A stretch of DNA of 64,000 nt, taken from the NCBI RefSeq assembly GCF_002251855.1, contig NZ_NOXW01000022.1, positions 372,001 to 436,000 on the forward strand. The letters are read 5' to 3'. Made by a program: the position numbers and the translations under genes. The notes below the pieces were generated by a model. The model was not told where the DNA came from. It searched no databases and was given only the letters and a program-made list of their open reading frames with translations. Of the stretch, positions 36,592 to 43,165 are shown in pieces. Each line of letters begins with the position of its first letter. The stretch's first letter is position 1. The DNA is from Rhodoferax sp. TH121. GTDB lineage: Bacteria; Pseudomonadota; Gammaproteobacteria; Burkholderiales; Burkholderiaceae_C.

Positions 36592-37734
36592 ATGCATAAA
36601 CTGCACATTTCCACCCAGTTCGACTCCGGCGCCATTGAGGTGGTGCAACTGGACCGGGCCGACGATATCCAGCTGCGCATCCGCAAGGACAGCGCGGCGG
36701 ACTTTGCCCAGTGGTTCCACTTTTGCCTGCATGGGGCGGCTTTTCAGCCGGTGACGCTGCGCTTCTTGAATGCAGGTGATAGCGCTTACCCCAAGGGCTG
36801 GGACGGCTATCAGGTGGTGGCCAGCTACGACCGCCAGGAGTGGACGCGCATCGACACGCAGTTTGATGGCCAAGAGATGACCGCGCGTCTCACGCCCATG
36901 GCGCAGGCGGTGTACTTTGCCTACTTCGAGCCCTATTCCTATGAGCAGCACCTGGACTTGCTGGCCTCGGCCGCCACCTCGCACTGGGTCACGCAGCAAC
37001 GACTGGGCAGCACGGTGCAGGGCCGCGACATGACGCTGCTGCGCATCACCGACGAGGCGGGCACCACCCCCATCGAGCAGAAAAAGAAGGTCTGGATGAT
37101 TGCGCGCCAGCACCCCGGCGAGACCATGGCCGAATGGTTTGTGGAGGGTTTTCTGGAACGCCTGCTGGATGCCGACGATGCCGTGGCCCGTGTGCTGCGC
37201 GACCGCTGTGTCTTCTATGTGGTGCCGCACATGAACCCGGACGGCGCGGTGCTGGGCAACCTGCGCACCAACGCCGCCGGCGCCAACCTGAACCGCGAAT
37301 GGGCAGAGCCAACGGCGGAGCGCTCGCCCGAGGTGCTGCTGGTGCGCCAAGCCATGCTCGACATTGGCGTGGACCTGAACCTGGATATTCACGGCGACGA
37401 GGGTCTGCCCTACAACTTTGTGGTGGGCTCCGAGGGAACGCCGGGTTACAGCCCGCGCATTGCCGCGCTGGAGGACGCGTTCAAGGTGGCTTGGGCCGCC
37501 AGCTGCCCCGACTTCCAGGACCGCCACAACTACGGCAAGACGGCGCCCGGCCAAGCCAATTTGACATTGGCCACCAACTGGATTGCCCAGCAGTTTGGCT
37601 GCCTGGCCTTCACCATCGAGATGCCGTTCAAAGACAACGCCGACCTGCCCGACCCCCTGGTGGGCTGGAGCGGCGAGCGCTCCAAGAAACTCGGCGCCAG
37701 CGTGCTGCAGCCGCTGCTGCAGTGGAGTGCTTAG
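36592..37734 (+). CDS. M14 family zinc carboxypeptidase (cytosolic carboxypeptidase-like)
   Basis: A 380-residue protein. The N-terminal 120 residues form a beta domain (FAQWFHFCLHGAAFQPVTLRFLN) typical of the cytosolic carboxypeptidase-like M14D group. The catalytic domain shows zinc ligands His174 and Glu177 (ARQHPGETMAEW) and His267 (LDIHGDEGLPYN), plus VVPHMNPDGAVLGNLRTNAAGANLNREW with the substrate-binding Asn/Arg. There is no signal peptide, so it acts in the cytoplasm. Its natural substrate is unknown to me. The last 4 bp overlap the convergent PEP-CTERM gene. Confidence 0.9.
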   Translation: MHKLHISTQFDSGAIEVVQLDRADDIQLRIRKDSAADFAQWFHFCLHGAAFQPVTLRFLNAGDSAYPKGWDGYQVVASYDRQEWTRIDTQFDGQEMTARLTPMAQAVYFAYFEPYSYEQHLDLLASAATSHWVTQQRLGSTVQGRDMTLLRITDEAGTTPIEQKKKVWMIARQHPGETMAEWFVEGFLERLLDADDAVARVLRDRCVFYVVPHMNPDGAVLGNLRTNAAGANLNREWAEPTAERSPEVLLVRQAMLDIGVDLNLDIHGDEGLPYNFVVGSEGTPGYSPRIAALEDAFKVAWAASCPDFQDRHNYGKTAPGQANLTLATNWIAQQFGCLAFTIEMPFKDNADLPDPLVGWSGERSKKLGASVLQPLLQWSA

Positions 37735-38558
37735 GCGGCTTTGACCGCCTTGCGCTTGCGCGCCACTGCCCCTACCAGCCCCAGCCCAGCCAGCAGCAGG
37801 GCGTAGGTTTCGGGTTCGGGGACAGCGGAGATGGGGGGGATGTAGCTATTTGCTTCACGGATGCGTGTGATATCGATACCAAAATTCACGCGTCCGGACT
37901 CGGTTCCCTGTCCGAGCCCATAGTGCGTGAAAAAGAAGGCGCTAGCGTTACTGCTGCGAGAAAACCTGCTTAGGTCAGAAGGGCTGATCTCATTGGGTCC
38001 CAGCATGTCCGGCGAAGCAAAGAGTCCGGCACCGCCGGCGAACAAAGAGAAAGATATCGATACGGAGGTCGCGATCGGGATGCCGCCGATCACGGTGCCC
38101 GCACCTGGCAGGGTGCTGCTGACCTGGGTGTTCAATGCAGCCGACTGAACAAACCCGGTTCGAAGGCCGTAAAGATCGAAGCCAACGCCAAATTGGTCAT
38201 TGGCCAGGTCTACGTAGCAATCAAAAGCCAAGTTCACGCAGGAGTTGTTGATCGCGGAGAAGGAGAACCCGTTTGAAGCGGCCGACGTGCTGCGGACCGC
38301 ATGGGTGTAGCGGCCCTTGTCCAACGCGGGGTCTGTATCTGGGGTGCTGAAGTCCAAATCGAACGACAGCGAAAACGCTTGCCCGTCTAGCGCATCGACG
38401 ATGCTGCTGCGCGTGGTCGTATTGCCGGACCCCTCGTTCAAGGTGCGGATCGTGCCTTCAACGTTGAAGTGGCGAATGGTTTCGGCCATGGCGGGTGCGC
38501 ACAACGTCACAGCCACAATGCCTGACACAACAGCTTTTTGAATGGCGGACATGGACAT
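37731..38558 (-). CDS. PEP-CTERM sorting domain protein
   Basis: A 275-residue exported protein. A signal peptide (MSMSAIQKAVVSGIVAVTLCAPAMA) starts it and a PEP-CTERM tripartite tail ends it: VPEPETYALLLAGLGLVG followed by AVARKRKAVKAA. Such tails are cut by an exosortase (EpsH type) and mark proteins for the outer surface or extracellular matrix; no exosortase is in this window. The central region is Ser/Asn/Phe-rich with a Cys pair (NNSCVNLAFDCYVD). It is the fourth gene of the minus-strand fibre-like operon, 23 bp after the CsgG-like gene, and ends overlapping the M14 gene by 4 bp. Confidence 0.85.
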   Translation of the reverse strand: MSMSAIQKAVVSGIVAVTLCAPAMAETIRHFNVEGTIRTLNEGSGNTTTRSSIVDALDGQAFSLSFDLDFSTPDTDPALDKGRYTHAVRSTSAASNGFSFSAINNSCVNLAFDCYVDLANDQFGVGFDLYGLRTGFVQSAALNTQVSSTLPGAGTVIGGIPIATSVSISFSLFAGGAGLFASPDMLGPNEISPSDLSRFSRSSNASAFFFTHYGLGQGTESGRVNFGIDITRIREANSYIPPISAVPEPETYALLLAGLGLVGAVARKRKAVKAA

Positions 38559-38581
38559 AGGTTTTCCTTTGGTTGGTGTTC

Positions 38582-40075
38582 TTACTTGAGTACTGCGTTA
38601 GCCGAAGCCACGGACTCCTTGGCCACGCTCTCCAGCAGTTTTTGAATGTCGCCAAATCCTCCGATGGCGTTCAGGTCCTGAAAGTCGCCCCAGCGCAGGG
38701 CGGCCGGAATGTCTTTGTAAATTTCTCGCGGTGCGGCGAAGCAGGCCACGGGCACACTGCCGCTCTCGCCAGGCAAGAGCTTGAAGCCTTGTTGGCCAGG
38801 CAATAGCAAGGGCTTTGTTGGTTCCACCATCGGATCATCGACAAAGCGGTTGGGGAAGATGCGCTGCAGTTTTCCGCCCGCGGTTTGTGCATAGCAATAC
38901 ACATAGGCTGGCGCGGTGGTTTGAACAGCGAATGACAGTCCTTCATTGGCCCCGCCGGGTGCGGGTGCAATCTTCAGCCCAATCCGTGCCGCTTCTGGGC
39001 TGGCCGCAGGCGGCGCGGCGGCGACATCACGAAATGGCTGCGCCGGTGGGGGTGGGAACGGGCTGCTCAAGAAACGGGTAAAGAAGGGCAGATCCACTAG
39101 CGCCTTGTCGCCCATGCCTGTGGCAGACCGGTAGGCCGATACCGCTTGCAGCAGAGCGGGGGTCACATTGCCGTTGGCCGGACCGTCAAAGTAGCCGCGG
39201 TTGCGCAGCTGGGTTTGAAAGTAGGCGGTGAGTTCGCCACCCCGCTCCATGCCAATGAACCAGTCTTCAATCTCGTTGGCAATCTCGGGGTTGCGGGCAT
39301 CGGTATTGAGGCAACTCCAATACGGCAGCTTGAGCAAGCGCCCAAACAGCTCCACCGACGACAGCTCCACCATGTTGCGCAGGGCCTGCGCGGTCCCGTC
39401 CGAGCGTTGCAGCGAGGTGCTGAAGTTAATGCCCACCTTCGTGAAGGTGGCCTGCGCGTCCAGGGCGTCTCCTTCTTTGGTGATGGTGGTGAGGTTTTTG
39501 GAAACCACACCCGGGATCAAGGATAGGCGGGCTGTATCGGCCATCGCCACATCCAGCCCCATCACATTGAATTGCTTGCTGGTGGAGGCGCCGGCCCCAA
39601 ACAAGCTGCCAAACGAGAATCCACCATCGGTCTGGCGCTTGATGACGCCCTCATCGAGCTGGGAAATCGAGCCGCGCAGATTGAAACGCGGCACCACCGC
39701 AAAAGCGCTGCGCTTCTGTGCGTTGGCCATGAAGGCCACGGCATTGTTGGCATCTTGCCCAAAGACGATCACTTCAATGGCCCGGCTACGCCGGCTCTGT
39801 TCCGAGATGGCGGACATCATCATGTCGCGCGTGCCAGCGCTGACTTTCTTGGTCGCGTCAGACAGGTCTTCCAGCACCACACTGACATCGCGTACCGCAT
39901 AGTCTATGTAGAGCTTGTCCATGCAGCGCATGGTGTCTGAGAAGTTGGTCACATTGCGTTGCAGCGCGCCGGTGGGCGACTTCAAGGCCGTCTGGGCATC
40001 CGCCGCTTTGGGCGGCAAGGGTGCGCAGGCGGTGACAACGAGCGTTGCCAATAGAACTAAACGTGACTGGGTCAT
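38582..40075 (-). CDS. CsgG-like outer-membrane lipoprotein with peptidoglycan-binding and DUF4384 domains
   Basis: A 497-residue protein starting at 40075, giving the lipoprotein signal MTQSRLVLLATLVVTAC (Cys17). Residues 35-255 follow the plan of CsgG/HfaB secretion-pore proteins: VSAGTRDMMMSAISEQ, a transmembrane-hairpin-like stretch (RGSISQLDEG ... STSKQFNVMGLDVAMADT), and the end MVELSSVELFGRLLKLPYW. Residues 275-335 look like a peptidoglycan-binding_1 domain (LTAYFQTQLRNRGYFDG, then TPALLQAVSAYR) and 375-455 like DUF4384 (FAVQTTAPAYVYCYAQTAGG, QRIFPNRF). It probably forms the export channel for the two repeat proteins encoded upstream. The domain calls are by eye; the role is inferred. 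Confidence 0.72.
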   Translation of the reverse strand: MTQSRLVLLATLVVTACAPLPPKAADAQTALKSPTGALQRNVTNFSDTMRCMDKLYIDYAVRDVSVVLEDLSDATKKVSAGTRDMMMSAISEQSRRSRAIEVIVFGQDANNAVAFMANAQKRSAFAVVPRFNLRGSISQLDEGVIKRQTDGGFSFGSLFGAGASTSKQFNVMGLDVAMADTARLSLIPGVVSKNLTTITKEGDALDAQATFTKVGINFSTSLQRSDGTAQALRNMVELSSVELFGRLLKLPYWSCLNTDARNPEIANEIEDWFIGMERGGELTAYFQTQLRNRGYFDGPANGNVTPALLQAVSAYRSATGMGDKALVDLPFFTRFLSSPFPPPPAQPFRDVAAAPPAASPEAARIGLKIAPAPGGANEGLSFAVQTTAPAYVYCYAQTAGGKLQRIFPNRFVDDPMVEPTKPLLLPGQQGFKLLPGESGSVPVACFAAPREIYKDIPAALRWGDFQDLNAIGGFGDIQKLLESVAKESVASANAVLK

Positions 40076-40091
40076 GGTGGTTGTGTGTTGC

Positions 40092-40433
40092 TTAGCGGCA
40101 GTTGTTGCCCGCCTGGATGATGTCGCCGGTGACGATGACCGTGGTTTCGCGGCGGGCAGAGGTCCCGATCTTTTTGTCATCTTCAAACACGTTGCCGATG
40201 GCAATGGTGCAGCCGTCACCCAAGGTCTTGATCGCTGAGCCTGTAGAGCTGGGCTCACCGTCAGCGAGCTTGGCGCTCGCGCGTTCGGCGGCGCGCGCTG
40301 CCTGCTCGCTTTTGGCCCGGGCAATGCGTGCGTTGATGTTGTCGCCTATCTCGGCGGAGCCAGCTTGGGCCGATGTGATGGCCGCAAATAAAACTGTAAC
40401 GCCCAGAGTGAATTGGATTCGACAAGTGCGCAT
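40092..40433 (-). CDS. Small secreted protein with one fibre-type repeat unit
   Basis: A 113-residue protein with signal peptide (FTLGVTVLFAAITSAQA), a charged Ala-rich helix (RIARAKSEQAARAAERASAK) and a C-terminal segment CTIAIGNV ... TVIVTGDIIQAGNNC. That segment repeats the two motifs of the 435-residue neighbour (QxIxIGSV and xIxGxIxQ), once each, and is framed by two cysteines. It starts one base... after the large repeat gene's stop and precedes the CsgG-like gene by 16 bp. By analogy with curli it could be a minor subunit or nucleator; that is inference. I do not recognise the family. Confidence 0.7.
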   Translation of the reverse strand: MRTCRIQFTLGVTVLFAAITSAQAGSAEIGDNINARIARAKSEQAARAAERASAKLADGEPSSTGSAIKTLGDGCTIAIGNVFEDDKKIGTSARRETTVIVTGDIIQAGNNCR

Positions 40434-40434
40434 T

Positions 40435-41742
40435 TCAACGTCCCTCGACGCCGCCGACGATCACTGTTTGCCGTTGGCTGCTACCACTGGTTTGCTGGTT
40501 GATGTCTCCGCTGATTTGGACATCAGTCGCAACTCTTCCGCTGGAGGTCCCGCGCACACTGCCCAGGTTAATAGTCTGCGTGATGTCGTCGCCGGCTGCA
40601 GCACTTTGGGTTAGGCGGCCGCTCACCAAAGCTTTCGTACTCACCACTGCACTCGTCTCTTGACTACTACCAACGCTGATGGTTTGTGTGATTCTTTCTC
40701 CAGACTTCGCTTCTTGGGAGATGGCGTTCGTGGTGAAGGCTTCAGTGGTCACTTGGTTGCCAGAGCGCTCTACAGTCCCAATTGCAATCTTCTGATTGGA
40801 GTTCGCTGTGTTTCTCTGAACTTGAGAGATCGTTCCTGAACTACCCGCTGAAGTGGCAGTATTGCCCCTGGAGTCCACCACGCTGCCTATTTGAATGGTC
40901 TGGGTTGAATCCGAGGCCGCTCCTGCGTCCTGGGTAGCCGTGCCATTCAGCGTTGCATTTGTTCTCGCATTGGTCGGACTGCCGCCAATGACGCTTCCGA
41001 CGTCCAGGGTCTGGGTCTGGTTGTTTGTCGTGGTCTTGACTTGATTGACGGCTGCATTGATGGTGCCATTGGTAGACACTTGTCCTGCAGCATCTACACG
41101 ATTCACGGCACCTGCGGTGATCGACTGAATGCCGCCAGATGAGCTCCGTTGGTCTTGTGTGATGCTTCCATTGATCAAGCCACGCGTGTTGATGCTGGAA
41201 GCCTGGCTGCCGCTGATGTTTGCTACACCAACGGACTGTCCACCACCATTGAACTCGCCGATTCTTCCTCCACCACCATCGCTAATTTGGGTCACGCCGG
41301 GGCCGCTGATCGTGCCATTGGTGTTTGCGGAGCCGACACTGGAGCCCGTCAAACTTCCAACTCCGATAGTTTGCTGGTTGCTGCCTGCTCCTCGTTGAAT
41401 TTGACTAACCGGTGCCGTAACTACGCCTGTTAGCGAAACATTTCCACCACTAGTTGCATCATTCTGGCCCGCAATAGAGAGGGTTTGGCTTGCTGATCGG
41501 ATGGTATTGCTTGACTGCGTAACGTTACCGGTGAGTGTGCCGCGGGTGGTTAAGTTCGAAATGCCCGGGCCGGAGGAGGCTGTCGCTTGGGTTGGCGTAG
41601 CGTTGCGATCAGCCGAGTTCTTTTCTGGAAACTCCACGGTGTCGGTTTTCCCGTCGGTCGCAGCAGTTTGCTGCGCCAGTACCGGGGAAATCGGCAAGCT
41701 GAAGAGTGCCACCAAAGCAAAGCAAGAACAAGGTTTGTTCAT
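40435..41742 (-). CDS. Secreted ten-repeat fibre-like protein (curlin-like architecture)
   Basis: A 435-residue exported protein (signal peptide ending SPVLA-QQ). From residue 66 to the end it consists of ten units of 32-45 residues. Each unit has a first strand of the form TNGTIxGxVTQ and a second of the form QTIxVGSV. The first-strand Gln falls at 76, 114, 152, 196, 234, 271, 308, 343, 379 and 416; the second-strand Gln at 86, 124, 169, 206, 244, 281, 317, 353, 389 and 425. Such regular Gln ladders on short beta strands occur in curlins and beta-solenoids. The only cysteines are in the signal peptide. AAGGAG precedes the start by eight bases. Composition is lower in GC than the neighbours. 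No known family is recognised. Confidence 0.75.
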   Translation of the reverse strand: MNKPCSCFALVALFSLPISPVLAQQTAATDGKTDTVEFPEKNSADRNATPTQATASSGPGISNLTTRGTLTGNVTQSSNTIRSASQTLSIAGQNDATSGGNVSLTGVVTAPVSQIQRGAGSNQQTIGVGSLTGSSVGSANTNGTISGPGVTQISDGGGGRIGEFNGGGQSVGVANISGSQASSINTRGLINGSITQDQRSSSGGIQSITAGAVNRVDAAGQVSTNGTINAAVNQVKTTTNNQTQTLDVGSVIGGSPTNARTNATLNGTATQDAGAASDSTQTIQIGSVVDSRGNTATSAGSSGTISQVQRNTANSNQKIAIGTVERSGNQVTTEAFTTNAISQEAKSGERITQTISVGSSQETSAVVSTKALVSGRLTQSAAAGDDITQTINLGSVRGTSSGRVATDVQISGDINQQTSGSSQRQTVIVGGVEGR

Positions 41743-41905
41743 TTCAATGTCTCCTTAGAAGTTGTTCGTTGAACCTGTTGTGATGGCTGTCGCTCTCCGT
41801 TCGCTGTTGGTCCCGGGGCTTCTACATTGGGTGGAAGTGGCCATGCCCAAGTCATCGTTCTTGCCATGTGCACAGTAGAGGTGAGCGAACGAGATTCAAC
41901 GACCG
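41743..41905 (-). promoter_or_regulatory. Upstream region of the fibre-like operon
   Basis: This 163-bp gap precedes the ten-repeat gene and must hold the promoter of the four-gene operon, unless it is read through from the COG4315 gene. Apart from the AAGGAG ribosome-binding site at its low end I see no clear operator. An open frame here (41739-41960) has no coding support. Confidence 0.45.
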
Positions 41906-42317: not shown

Positions 42318-43049
42318 TCACACGGCTGCCTTGGCACTGCGGCGTCGCACCACGGCTCCCATCAGCCCCAACCCGGCCAACAGCATGGCGTAGGTTTCGG
42401 GTTCGGGGACTGGCGCCAAGGCTGCCGAATACACCACGTTGTCCATGGCGTAGCTGCTCATGCAACAGCCCGCACCCTCGAAGACGATGCGGTTGAACGC
42501 CTGGGTGGATGTGAAGCCGATGAATCGCAAGGTGCCGCCTGCCGTGGTGGGCGGCAGGTATTCGCCCACGTGGCTGTACGAGCCATAGCCGGCAAGGCTA
42601 TTCGCGTCGACGCTGATGAGGGAATAGGGCCTGTTGGTGGGGTTGATTCCTGCGAACCATGCACCGAATGCCATCAGCCCTTGGTCAAACTGAAAATCAC
42701 CCCATCCACCATAGTCTGTGTTGAGATGCAGGTTGGTACTGCCATCGGTGTAATAGGTCTGGCTCGGTGCGTCCAACGTGAAATGACCGCGCGCTGTAAA
42801 GGCACCGAAATCCAGGTTGTTGGCCGACACGTCTGCGGTATAGCCATTGAAGTTGGTGCTCTGAACTGCGCCGGTAGCCGCCAAAAAGCTGGTTGGGTCT
42901 GTGTACACCGTGAAGCTGGCGCTTGCCGGCAACGCTGCGAGTGCGAGGGTGCCGGCCAATGCGGCATGGCCCAAAGCCTTGCGCCGGCTAGTCCGGGGTT
43001 GACCGGGCGCATTGAAGACCGTGGTCCAACGTGGGTTGCGGATATGCAT
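42318..43049 (-). CDS. PEP-CTERM sorting domain protein, second copy
   Basis: A 243-residue exported protein. The start ATG at 43049 has GGGAG six bases upstream. A long signal region (RKALGHAALAGTLALAALPASAS) is followed by a beta-rich domain (FNGYTADVSANNLDFG, HVGEYLPPTTAGGTLRFIGF, IVFEGAGCCMSSYAMDNV) resembling the jelly-roll PEP-CTERM proteins. It ends with VPEPETYAMLLAGLGLMGAV and RRRSAKAAV. The tail is close to that of the protein at 37731-38558 (VPEPETYALLLAGLGLVGAV), so both are probably processed by the same exosortase, encoded outside the window. Confidence 0.88.
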   Translation of the reverse strand: MHIRNPRWTTVFNAPGQPRTSRRKALGHAALAGTLALAALPASASFTVYTDPTSFLAATGAVQSTNFNGYTADVSANNLDFGAFTARGHFTLDAPSQTYYTDGSTNLHLNTDYGGWGDFQFDQGLMAFGAWFAGINPTNRPYSLISVDANSLAGYGSYSHVGEYLPPTTAGGTLRFIGFTSTQAFNRIVFEGAGCCMSSYAMDNVVYSAALAPVPEPETYAMLLAGLGLMGAVVRRRSAKAAV

Positions 43050-43165
43050 AGAAAACTCCCTGAAGTGTGGGTGGTGTGCCCGGTGGCGAAGTTCGAAAAC
43101 TTCAAGGGAGAGGCTAAAACTCCAAGGGGCAAGCCGCAATGCGTCTGAGTGCGTAGGCGGCAGCA

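What the first reader, a model, noticed from the sequence alone, without database searches (positions are those of the whole stretch)
37731..41742. Undescribed curli-like fibre and secretion operon
Four tightly spaced minus-strand genes encode a secreted ten-repeat protein, a small secreted protein with one copy of the same two motifs, a CsgG-like outer-membrane lipoprotein fused to peptidoglycan-binding and DUF4384-like domains, and a PEP-CTERM protein. The gaps between them are 1, 16 and 23 bp. Curli systems have the same logic (major subunit, nucleator, CsgG pore), but the repeat here (TNGTIxGxVTQ ... QTIxVGSV) is not a curlin repeat and no CsgE/F is seen. Seen: repeats, signal peptides, gene order. 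Inferred: export of the repeat proteins through the CsgG-like pore to form fibres.
Basis: partly seen in the sequence, partly recalled or inferred. Interest (0 to 1): 0.8.

Follow-up and report, generated by a model that had tools for sequence, protein, structure and literature searches.

The report
Curli-like export operon, HfaB-type pore
A bacterium carries a small gene set that looks like an uncharacterised relative of the curli and holdfast-anchor export machines: a pore-like protein with a predicted cell-wall hook, a small partner, and a ten-repeat protein that it probably exports to the surface.

Summary
Three minus-strand genes (window 38582-41742) encode a secreted ten-repeat protein, a small secreted two-cysteine protein, and a lipoprotein whose N-terminal domain is CsgG/HfaB-like: profile-profile P 7e-13 to HfaB and 8e-8 to CsgG, an AlphaFold model whose best PDB matches are CsgG, and a cysteine pair shared with HfaB but not CsgG. 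A peptidoglycan-binding-like domain and DUF4384 follow. The parts travel together: of 399 genomes of the order, 13 carry the small protein, all among the 19 with the lipoprotein, and all 14 hits lie within 2.7 kb of it. Relatives occur in Alpha-, Beta- and Gammaproteobacteria. CsgE, CsgF and Pfam curlin models find nothing in this genome. The PEP-CTERM gene is not part of the system (2 of 80 loci). The repeat gene is a divergent allele relative to the nearest relative (48-66% DNA identity against mostly 77-95% in the adjoining genes), as expected of a surface part. Best reading: a wall-anchored CsgG-superfamily pore exporting beta-solenoid subunits, working like curli or HfaABD. Homology and linkage are shown; pore activity, export and fibre formation are inferred. 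New variant of a known kind.

The parts
40435..41742 (-). P0001, secreted repeat protein, 435 aa; predicted beta-solenoid subunit, the presumed exported subunit
   Evidence: ORF; ten repeat units; all-beta AlphaFold model, pLDDT 81.8
41605..41673 (-). Leader of mature P0001 (residues 24-46): predicted disordered, yet Q24, G31 and T35 (and A23 just before) are the same in 7 of 7 orthologues; candidate export signal (inferred)
40441..41604 (-). Ten repeat units of P0001 (residues 47-434, with a terminal half unit), consensus QTIxVGSV...GxVxT....GxITQ, about 36-38 residues apart in the C-terminal part
40092..40433 (-). P0002, small secreted protein, 113 aa, two cysteines (75, 112); conserved partner of the pore gene
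40095..40214 (-). Conserved C-terminal motif of P0002 (residues 74-113: C..[IV]xIGNV...TVI.TGDIIQ...C)
   Evidence: 37 of 79 related loci carry it at the very C-terminus; 0 in 145,533 bases of control loci
38582..40075 (-). P0003, outer-membrane lipoprotein, 497 aa; presumed pore
40025..40036 (-). Lipobox of P0003 (VTAC, residues 14-17; Ala at +2)
   Evidence: sequence; lipobox-like motif in 54 of 79 relatives by a crude test
39290..39970 (-). CsgG/HfaB-like domain of P0003 (residues 36-262) with the invariant pair Cys51 and Cys255
39059..39289 (-). Peptidoglycan-binding-like domain of P0003 (about residues 263-339)
   Evidence: family profile against PDB, E 6e-4; helices with pLDDT mostly above 90
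38732..38944 (-). DUF4384 of P0003 (residues 378-448)
   Evidence: Pfam E 1.9e-10, over cut-off
41743..41905 (-). Region upstream of the operon; diverged together with the repeat gene in the nearest relative
   Evidence: no sigma-70-like match
37731..38558 (-). P0004, PEP-CTERM protein: neighbour, judged NOT part of the system
   Evidence: beside the pore gene in the window and L012 only, 2 of 80 loci

Best explanation
An export operon of the CsgG superfamily that works like curli or the Caulobacter HfaABD anchor. P0003 is lipidated, reaches the outer membrane, oligomerises through its CsgG/HfaB-like domain into a pore, and holds on to the wall through its peptidoglycan-binding-like domain, with DUF4384 as a further periplasmic platform. 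P0001 crosses the inner membrane by its signal peptide, passes the pore unfolded guided by its conserved disordered leader, and folds outside into a rod-like beta-solenoid that stacks into a surface fibre. P0002 acts at the pore as gate, chaperone or nucleator; its two C-terminal cysteines probably pair. Shown: reading frames, repeats, lipobox, CsgG/HfaB homology and predicted fold, linkage of the parts across genomes, a divergent allele of the repeat gene. Inferred: pore formation, export, polymerisation, role of P0002, wall anchoring.
For: CsgG/HfaB homology: P 7e-13 (HfaB) and 8.2e-8 (CsgG) against 0.039-0.86 for 11 other families and 10 column-shuffled controls. Predicted fold: the 14 best PDB rows are CsgG, E 1.1e-6 to 6.2e-5. 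Cys51 and Cys255 in 64 of 64 rows, matching two cysteines in 17 of 17 HfaB. Linkage: small protein in 37 of 79 loci by profile, 0 in controls; in 13 of 399 genomes, all among the 19 with the lipoprotein. Secreted repeat protein in 39 of 79 loci, with the small protein in 37 of these. Regular all-beta model. The repeat unit is recognised in repeat proteins of four gammaproteobacterial loci. Divergent allele of the repeat gene in L012.
Against: No Pfam or NCBIfam CsgG, HfaB, CsgE, CsgF or curlin model reaches its cut-off here (PF03783 and NF037935 none in the genome). TM-scores to CsgG are modest (0.38-0.50 by CsgG length in the first 14 rows, rmsd 7-15 A) and both predicted hairpin tips have pLDDT under 50. 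A check for alternating hydrophobicity in the hairpin strands was weak (0.80, 0.74, -0.38, -0.56). 38 of 79 loci with the lipoprotein have neither partner, so the pore may serve other cargo or purposes. Most Rhodocyclaceae-type relatives show no lipobox. No fibre, amyloid or export data exist.
Confidence: 0.57

Rival explanations
1. Holdfast-anchor reading: pore, repeat and small protein form a compact surface anchor that ties an exopolysaccharide to the wall, as HfaABD does, and no long fibre is built.
For: Nearest pore profile is HfaB with the same cysteine pair; HfaA and HfaD need HfaB to reach the surface and the complex holds a polysaccharide (PMC6707917, passages); wall-binding-like domain.
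Against: P0001 and P0002 are not detectably HfaD or HfaA by profile (0.1% and 3%). No search for holdfast polysaccharide (hfs) genes was made.
Confidence: 0.23
2. The repeat protein is exported through the pore but stays a soluble or monomeric surface solenoid (an adhesin or receptor), not a polymer.
For: The AlphaFold monomer is a complete regular solenoid; ten imperfect repeats; divergent allele as in variable adhesins. Weak Foldseek matches are mostly beta-helical adhesins and enzymes, none significant.
Against: Curlin-like motif in repeat proteins at related loci; open-ended repeats would favour stacking (inference).
Confidence: 0.12
3. P0003 is a ring-forming lipoprotein of the PelC, FlgT or HpaA kind that does not pass proteins, and P0001 leaves by another route.
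For: FlgT, HpaA and PelC also match the model at E 7.8e-5 to 7.9e-4.
Against: CsgG ranks first; the profile meets CsgG structures over P0003 residues 147-197, though at E 0.25; CsgG and HfaB profiles match over 180-211 columns; strict linkage to small secreted proteins.
Confidence: 0.06
4. Chance neighbours without common function.
For: The fourth gene (PEP-CTERM) is such a neighbour.
Against: Small protein beside the lipoprotein gene in 13 of 13 genomes of the order sample that carry it; small and repeat proteins together in 37 of 79 loci.
Confidence: 0.02

Closest known systems
HfaABD holdfast anchor of Caulobacter (HfaB, NCBIfam NF037935)
   Same: CsgG-type pore lipoprotein (profile P 7e-13) with the same two extra cysteines; a small and a large secreted repeat-type protein next to it
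   Different: P0003 adds peptidoglycan-binding-like and DUF4384 domains; scores 13.6 bits where NF037935 needs 300; P0001 and P0002 not recognisable as HfaD and HfaA
Curli, Csg system (CsgG PF03783, CsgA/B PF07012, CsgE PF10627, CsgF PF10614)
   Same: Pore domain fold and profile (P 8e-8); exported beta-repeat protein plus small partner; relatives of the repeat protein at two loci carry QxGxxN
   Different: No CsgE, CsgF or curlin-repeat match in the genome; P0001 repeats are about 36-38 residues apart with no QxGxxN; extra C-terminal domains on the pore
'DUF4384 domain-containing protein' (public name of relatives, e.g. Azospirillum plasmid records)
   Same: Same lipoprotein family, about 31% identical over 88% and 57% of P0003 in the two plasmid records
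   Different: The name misses the CsgG/HfaB-like domain; no small or repeat protein was found in the Azospirillum loci except L075 (a repeat-like protein, judged by eye)
PelC, FlgT and HpaA-type lipoproteins
   Same: Weaker fold matches to the same domain
   Different: Rank below CsgG

Membership tests
CsgG superfamily | CsgG-type domain by profile and fold | tested here: met
   P 8.2e-8 to CsgG, 7e-13 to HfaB; best PDB matches CsgG. Pfam PF03783 itself finds nothing in the genome.
Curli (Csg) | CsgA/B with curlin repeats (QxGxxN, PF07012) | tested here: not met
   0 QxGxxN in P0001; PF07012 none in the genome. Two proteins at related loci have 4 and 5 QxGxxN, 0 of 1000 shuffles each.
Curli (Csg) | CsgE and CsgF | tested here: not met
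   PF10627 and PF10614 find nothing in the genome; both ring in the E. coli control.
Curli (Csg) | Extracellular amyloid fibres | not testable with these tools
   Needs microscopy and dye binding.
HfaABD | HfaB by the NCBI equivalog cut-off | tested here: not met
   13.6 bits against a cut-off of 300; related by profile only.
HfaABD | Cysteine pair of HfaB | tested here: met
   Cys51 and Cys255 in 64 of 64 rows; HfaB 17 of 17. That the pair is defining for HfaB is my inference.
HfaABD | HfaA and HfaD homologues | tested here: not met
   Profile comparison 3% (P0002 family with HfaA) and 0.1% (P0001 family with HfaD).
HfaABD | Holdfast polysaccharide genes in the genome | not tested
   No search for hfs genes was made.
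CsgG superfamily | Oligomeric outer-membrane pore | not testable with these tools
   No multimer prediction available; hydrophobicity alternation in the predicted hairpins was weak.

The most novel reading that the evidence does not exclude
A third branch of CsgG-superfamily export beside curli and HfaABD, spread over Alpha-, Beta- and Gammaproteobacteria: a wall-anchored HfaB-like pore with a dedicated two-cysteine partner that gates or nucleates, and swappable solenoid subunits that range from curlin-like to quite different repeats and are exchanged between lineages as cassettes.
Probability: 0.42. Interest if true: 0.75.

Novelty: new variant of a known kind. Interest (0 to 1): 0.6.

Why it matters
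It would add an uncharacterised and widespread protein-export pathway to the two CsgG-type ones with known biology, explain a family now named only by DUF4384, and join curlin-like repeats to a different solenoid repeat through relatives. It makes testable how a CsgG-type pore works without recognisable CsgE and CsgF, and whether such pores are tethered to the wall. It could bear on attachment and flocs of water and sludge bacteria (Rhodoferax, Accumulibacter and Azoarcus entries are among the relatives).

Tried and rejected
Rejected: PEP-CTERM as a fourth part (by a crude sorting-motif pattern it lies beside the pore gene only in the window and L012, 2 of 80). Rejected by profile comparison: P0002 as HfaA relative, P0001 as HfaD relative; a likeness of AIGN...NTVIV in HfaA to P0002, seen by eye, was not confirmed. 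Not established: P0002 carrying one copy of the P0001 unit (9 of 200 shuffles as high for P0002; 3 to 153 of 200 over the 22 family members; hhalign P 0.011). No sigma-70-like promoter (0 found, 1.3 expected) and terminator-like sites at chance level (7 against 6.2). PDB sequence searches: P0003 alone none; P0001 family one hit, E 0.033, a chain named Azi13; one gammaproteobacterial repeat protein, one hit at E 0.32: none used. Foldseek of the P0001 model: none under E 0.1; a curli CsgA entry (8c50) is at E 0.42, which I do not use. Hydrophobicity alternation in the predicted membrane hairpins: weak, inconclusive. Fast evolution as sole cause of the P0001 divergence from L012 is unlikely because synonymous sites are saturated as well; misaligned repeats could inflate this, though 427 of 435 residues align.

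Papers (open-licence library only): DUF4384 with CsgG 0; DUF4384 alone 5, listing only; CsgG with HfaB 4; CsgG, HfaB and holdfast 2; HfaA with HfaD 4; CsgG-like with amyloid, secretion and betaproteobacteria 0; CsgG with Accumulibacter 0; CsgG with Azospirillum 4, listing only; 'CsgG family' with peptidoglycan-binding 1, listing only; a curli diversity search 23, ten listed. Passages were read in PMC6707917, PMC3521004, PMC10192328 and PMC12822426.
Full report
What is there. On the minus strand, 41742 to 38582, three genes follow each other with gaps of 1 and 16 bp: P0001 (435 aa), P0002 (113 aa) and P0003 (497 aa from the ATG at 40075). A fourth co-directional gene, P0004 (275 aa, PEP-CTERM), starts 23 bp later. 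The window lies in a genome of 3.99 Mb in 22 contigs, rated 100% complete. The nearest named relatives of P0003 are a Curvibacter MAG (L012, 96%) and a Rhodoferax MAG (L006, 81%).

Repeats. From the P0001 orthologues of seven species I cut 54 repeat units. A model of 40 units that excludes P0001 and L012 scores P0001 281 bits; the best of 500 shuffles is 35.4. It places ten units reading QTIxVGSV...GxVxT....GxITQ (two at the N-terminal end are partial) and a terminal half unit. A plain self-similarity test peaks at lags 36 and 37, with weaker peaks at 19 and 72, but the lag-36 peak (z 4.8) barely passes the highest shuffle value (4.74). The AlphaFold model is all-beta and regular (mean pLDDT 81.8, pTM 0.80, mostly above 90 from residue 171 on). 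Residues 5-59 are under pLDDT 50, although A23, Q24, G31 and T35 are the same in 7 of 7 orthologues. Pfam and NCBIfam give nothing; Foldseek against the PDB gives nothing under E 0.1.

The pore candidate. Pfam sees only DUF4384 above cut-off; NCBIfam gives a trace of HfaB (13.6 bits, cut-off 300); the CsgG and HfaB models find nothing in the genome. With a 64-row family alignment (P0003 and 63 of the 79 loci), residues 36-262 match an HfaB profile (17 sequences of 20 loci) at P 7e-13 and a CsgG profile (15 of 20 loci) at P 8.2e-8; HfaB against CsgG gives 1.5e-25. Eleven neighbour families and ten column-shuffled controls give P 0.039 to 0.86. The AlphaFold model (mean pLDDT 78.6, pTM 0.75) matches CsgG first in the PDB (4uv2, E 1.1e-6; the 14 best rows are CsgG), ahead of FlgT, HpaA and PelC. 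The superposition is loose: TM-scores of 0.38-0.50 by CsgG length and rmsd of 7-15 A in those rows, and the tips of both predicted hairpins have pLDDT under 50. The family profile also meets CsgG structures over what corresponds to P0003 residues 147-197, at E 0.25, weak by itself. Hydrophobicity alternation in the hairpin strands is weak. Cysteines 51 and 255 are in 64 of 64 rows and align with the two non-lipobox cysteines of HfaB (17 of 17); CsgG has only its lipobox cysteine (13 of 15). So the domain is CsgG-superfamily and nearer to HfaB. Behind it lie a peptidoglycan-binding-like domain (E 6e-4 to a chain named L,D-transpeptidase family protein, about residues 270-339) and DUF4384 with two more invariant cysteines. 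A crude test sees a lipobox in 54 of 79 relatives (L067 and L079 doubtful; at least five of the others look lipobox-like by eye); most Rhodocyclaceae-type proteins show none.

The set travels together. A scan of 84,980 species genomes gave 79 loci with relatives of P0003 (81 candidates, best 80 kept; a lower bound, as it needs one of two conserved peptides), with titles from Beta-, Gamma- and Alphaproteobacteria and one 'Deltaproteobacteria' MAG; many are MAGs, so single placements may be wrong. In the six closest loci with upstream sequence (L006, L007, L009-L012; L008 is cut off by its contig end) repeat and small proteins precede P0003. Over all 79 loci a profile of the small protein's C-terminus finds it in 37, of which 26 were not seeds; it ends at or one residue before the stop codon in all 37, and there are 0 hits in 145,533 bases of CsgG and HfaB control loci. 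Two more are seen otherwise (L052, cluster; L081), making 39 of 79. A secreted repeat protein is recognisable in 39 of 79 (33 by clustering; six judged by eye). Both occur in 37; each alone in 2 (Fisher 1e-17, not corrected for shared descent or for judgement by eye). The other 38 loci have neither: an Azospirillum-Rhodopila group, a group with a secreted protein of about 240 aa (9 loci), and cut-off contigs; a family that includes sigma-factor-like proteins is in 14 loci and an apparent partner in 12. So the pore can occur without these partners.

Sample of whole genomes. In 399 genomes of the order, 45 match the P0003 profile; by my reading of the table, 19 of them match the CsgG-like part (E at most 4.6e-23) and 26 only the columns of the PG-binding and DUF4384 domains. 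The small protein is found in 13 of the 399, all 13 among the 19; all 14 hits lie on the same contig within 2.7 kb of the lipoprotein gene (Fisher 3e-20). None was found in the other 380, with the limit that at most 12 first-look candidates per genome were scored. The window-type repeat protein is in 2 of 399, both times at the operon (at most 4 candidates scored). Each part occurs once in the own genome. Of 101 near relatives, 5 have a match to P0003: the operon is rare and patchy.

Relation to curlin. P0001 has none of the published minimal motif QxGxxN (motif from PMC3521004, passages). PF07012, CsgE and CsgF find nothing in the genome, while each rings in the E. coli control. But the window-type unit model, trained on the seven close orthologues only, recognises the repeat proteins of four gammaproteobacterial loci (61-74 bits against at most 27.2 in 200 shuffles each), whose repeats add QxxxGxxN (4-9 per protein, 0 of 1000 shuffles each). 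Two proteins at related betaproteobacterial loci (L021, L081) have 4 and 5 QxGxxN (0 of 1000 shuffles each); a second one at L081 has 2, not above chance (108 of 1000). The only BLAST link from the window type to these other repeat proteins is one pair at E 2e-7. Pfam and NCBIfam curlin models do not recognise ten such relatives. So the window repeat is not curlin, yet sits in a range of repeats that comes close to it.

Surface-type evolution. Between window and L012, P0003 is 95.8% identical and the M14 and M48 peptidases 93.7% and 96.0%; P0002, P0004, the Lipoprotein_15 and FecR-like neighbours are 77-88%; P0001 is 54.3%. Its synonymous distance is saturated (2.5 against 0.38-0.73 in the seven others). 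DNA identity falls to 48-66% per 100 bases from about 41,900 to 40,400 (upstream region and repeat gene), then climbs through P0002 (77-92%) to P0003 (82-95%); on the other side the Lipoprotein_15 gene is at 82-92%. One lineage seems to have taken a distant allele of the repeat gene. This is what one expects of an exposed part; it is not proof of exposure, and the PEP-CTERM gene at 42318-43139 shows a similar drop.

What does not belong. PEP-CTERM genes beside the pore: 2 of 80 loci. Exosortase genes are elsewhere in the genome (two matches).

Mechanism. Lipoprotein pore in the outer membrane, tied to the wall by its periplasmic domains; repeat protein exported unfolded with its disordered leader as signal; folding outside into a solenoid that stacks; small two-cysteine protein as gate, chaperone or nucleator. 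The precedent: HfaB is CsgG-like, HfaA and HfaD depend on it to reach the outer membrane, HfaA forms resistant multimers (PMC6707917, passages). Curlin subunits are predicted solenoids, in E. coli with a disordered leader that serves as secretion signal (PMC10192328, passages). Pore, export, fibre and roles are inferred. My confidence is 0.57 for pore plus export plus fibre, and about 0.95 each (my estimate) for CsgG-superfamily membership and for the first three genes being one functional unit.

Novelty. No paper found joins these parts (open-licence library only). The annotated plasmid relatives are named 'DUF4384 domain-containing protein'. I rate it a new variant of a known kind.

Noticed in passing
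window 42318-43139 and L012 2975-3775: A second PEP-CTERM gene upstream of the operon is also replaced by a divergent one between window and nearest relative (46-61% DNA identity in most of it).
   Followed up: partly
L016-L020, L023, L025, L026, L031, upstream of the lipoprotein gene: A subfamily of the lipoprotein is preceded by a secreted protein of about 240 aa instead of repeat and small proteins (9 loci).
   Followed up: partly
L007 7500-8063, L009 7497-8063, L002 3033-3611: Sigma-factor-like genes directly downstream of the lipoprotein gene, a possible dedicated regulator; the cluster has 14 loci.
   Followed up: partly
L056 and L066, downstream of the lipoprotein gene: A longer operon type: lipoprotein, a protein of about 210-230 aa ending in a cysteine motif, a 300-aa protein, several 100-aa repeat proteins, the small two-cysteine protein and an OmpA-like protein.
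   Followed up: partly
L030 3769-4149, L041 7887-8189, L033 8504-8848: Further small secreted proteins with a CWQxG motif near the pore gene; possible CsgE/F-like accessory, untested.
   Followed up: no
L005 1288-3237 (genome G076): A shorter HfaB/CsgG-like lipoprotein (373 aa) preceded by two small secreted repeat-like proteins; looks like a related export unit.
   Followed up: no
genome C17:863460-864221 and C13:53746-54480 (L157, L158): Two exosortase genes, so PEP-CTERM proteins of the window can be processed by machinery elsewhere.
   Followed up: no
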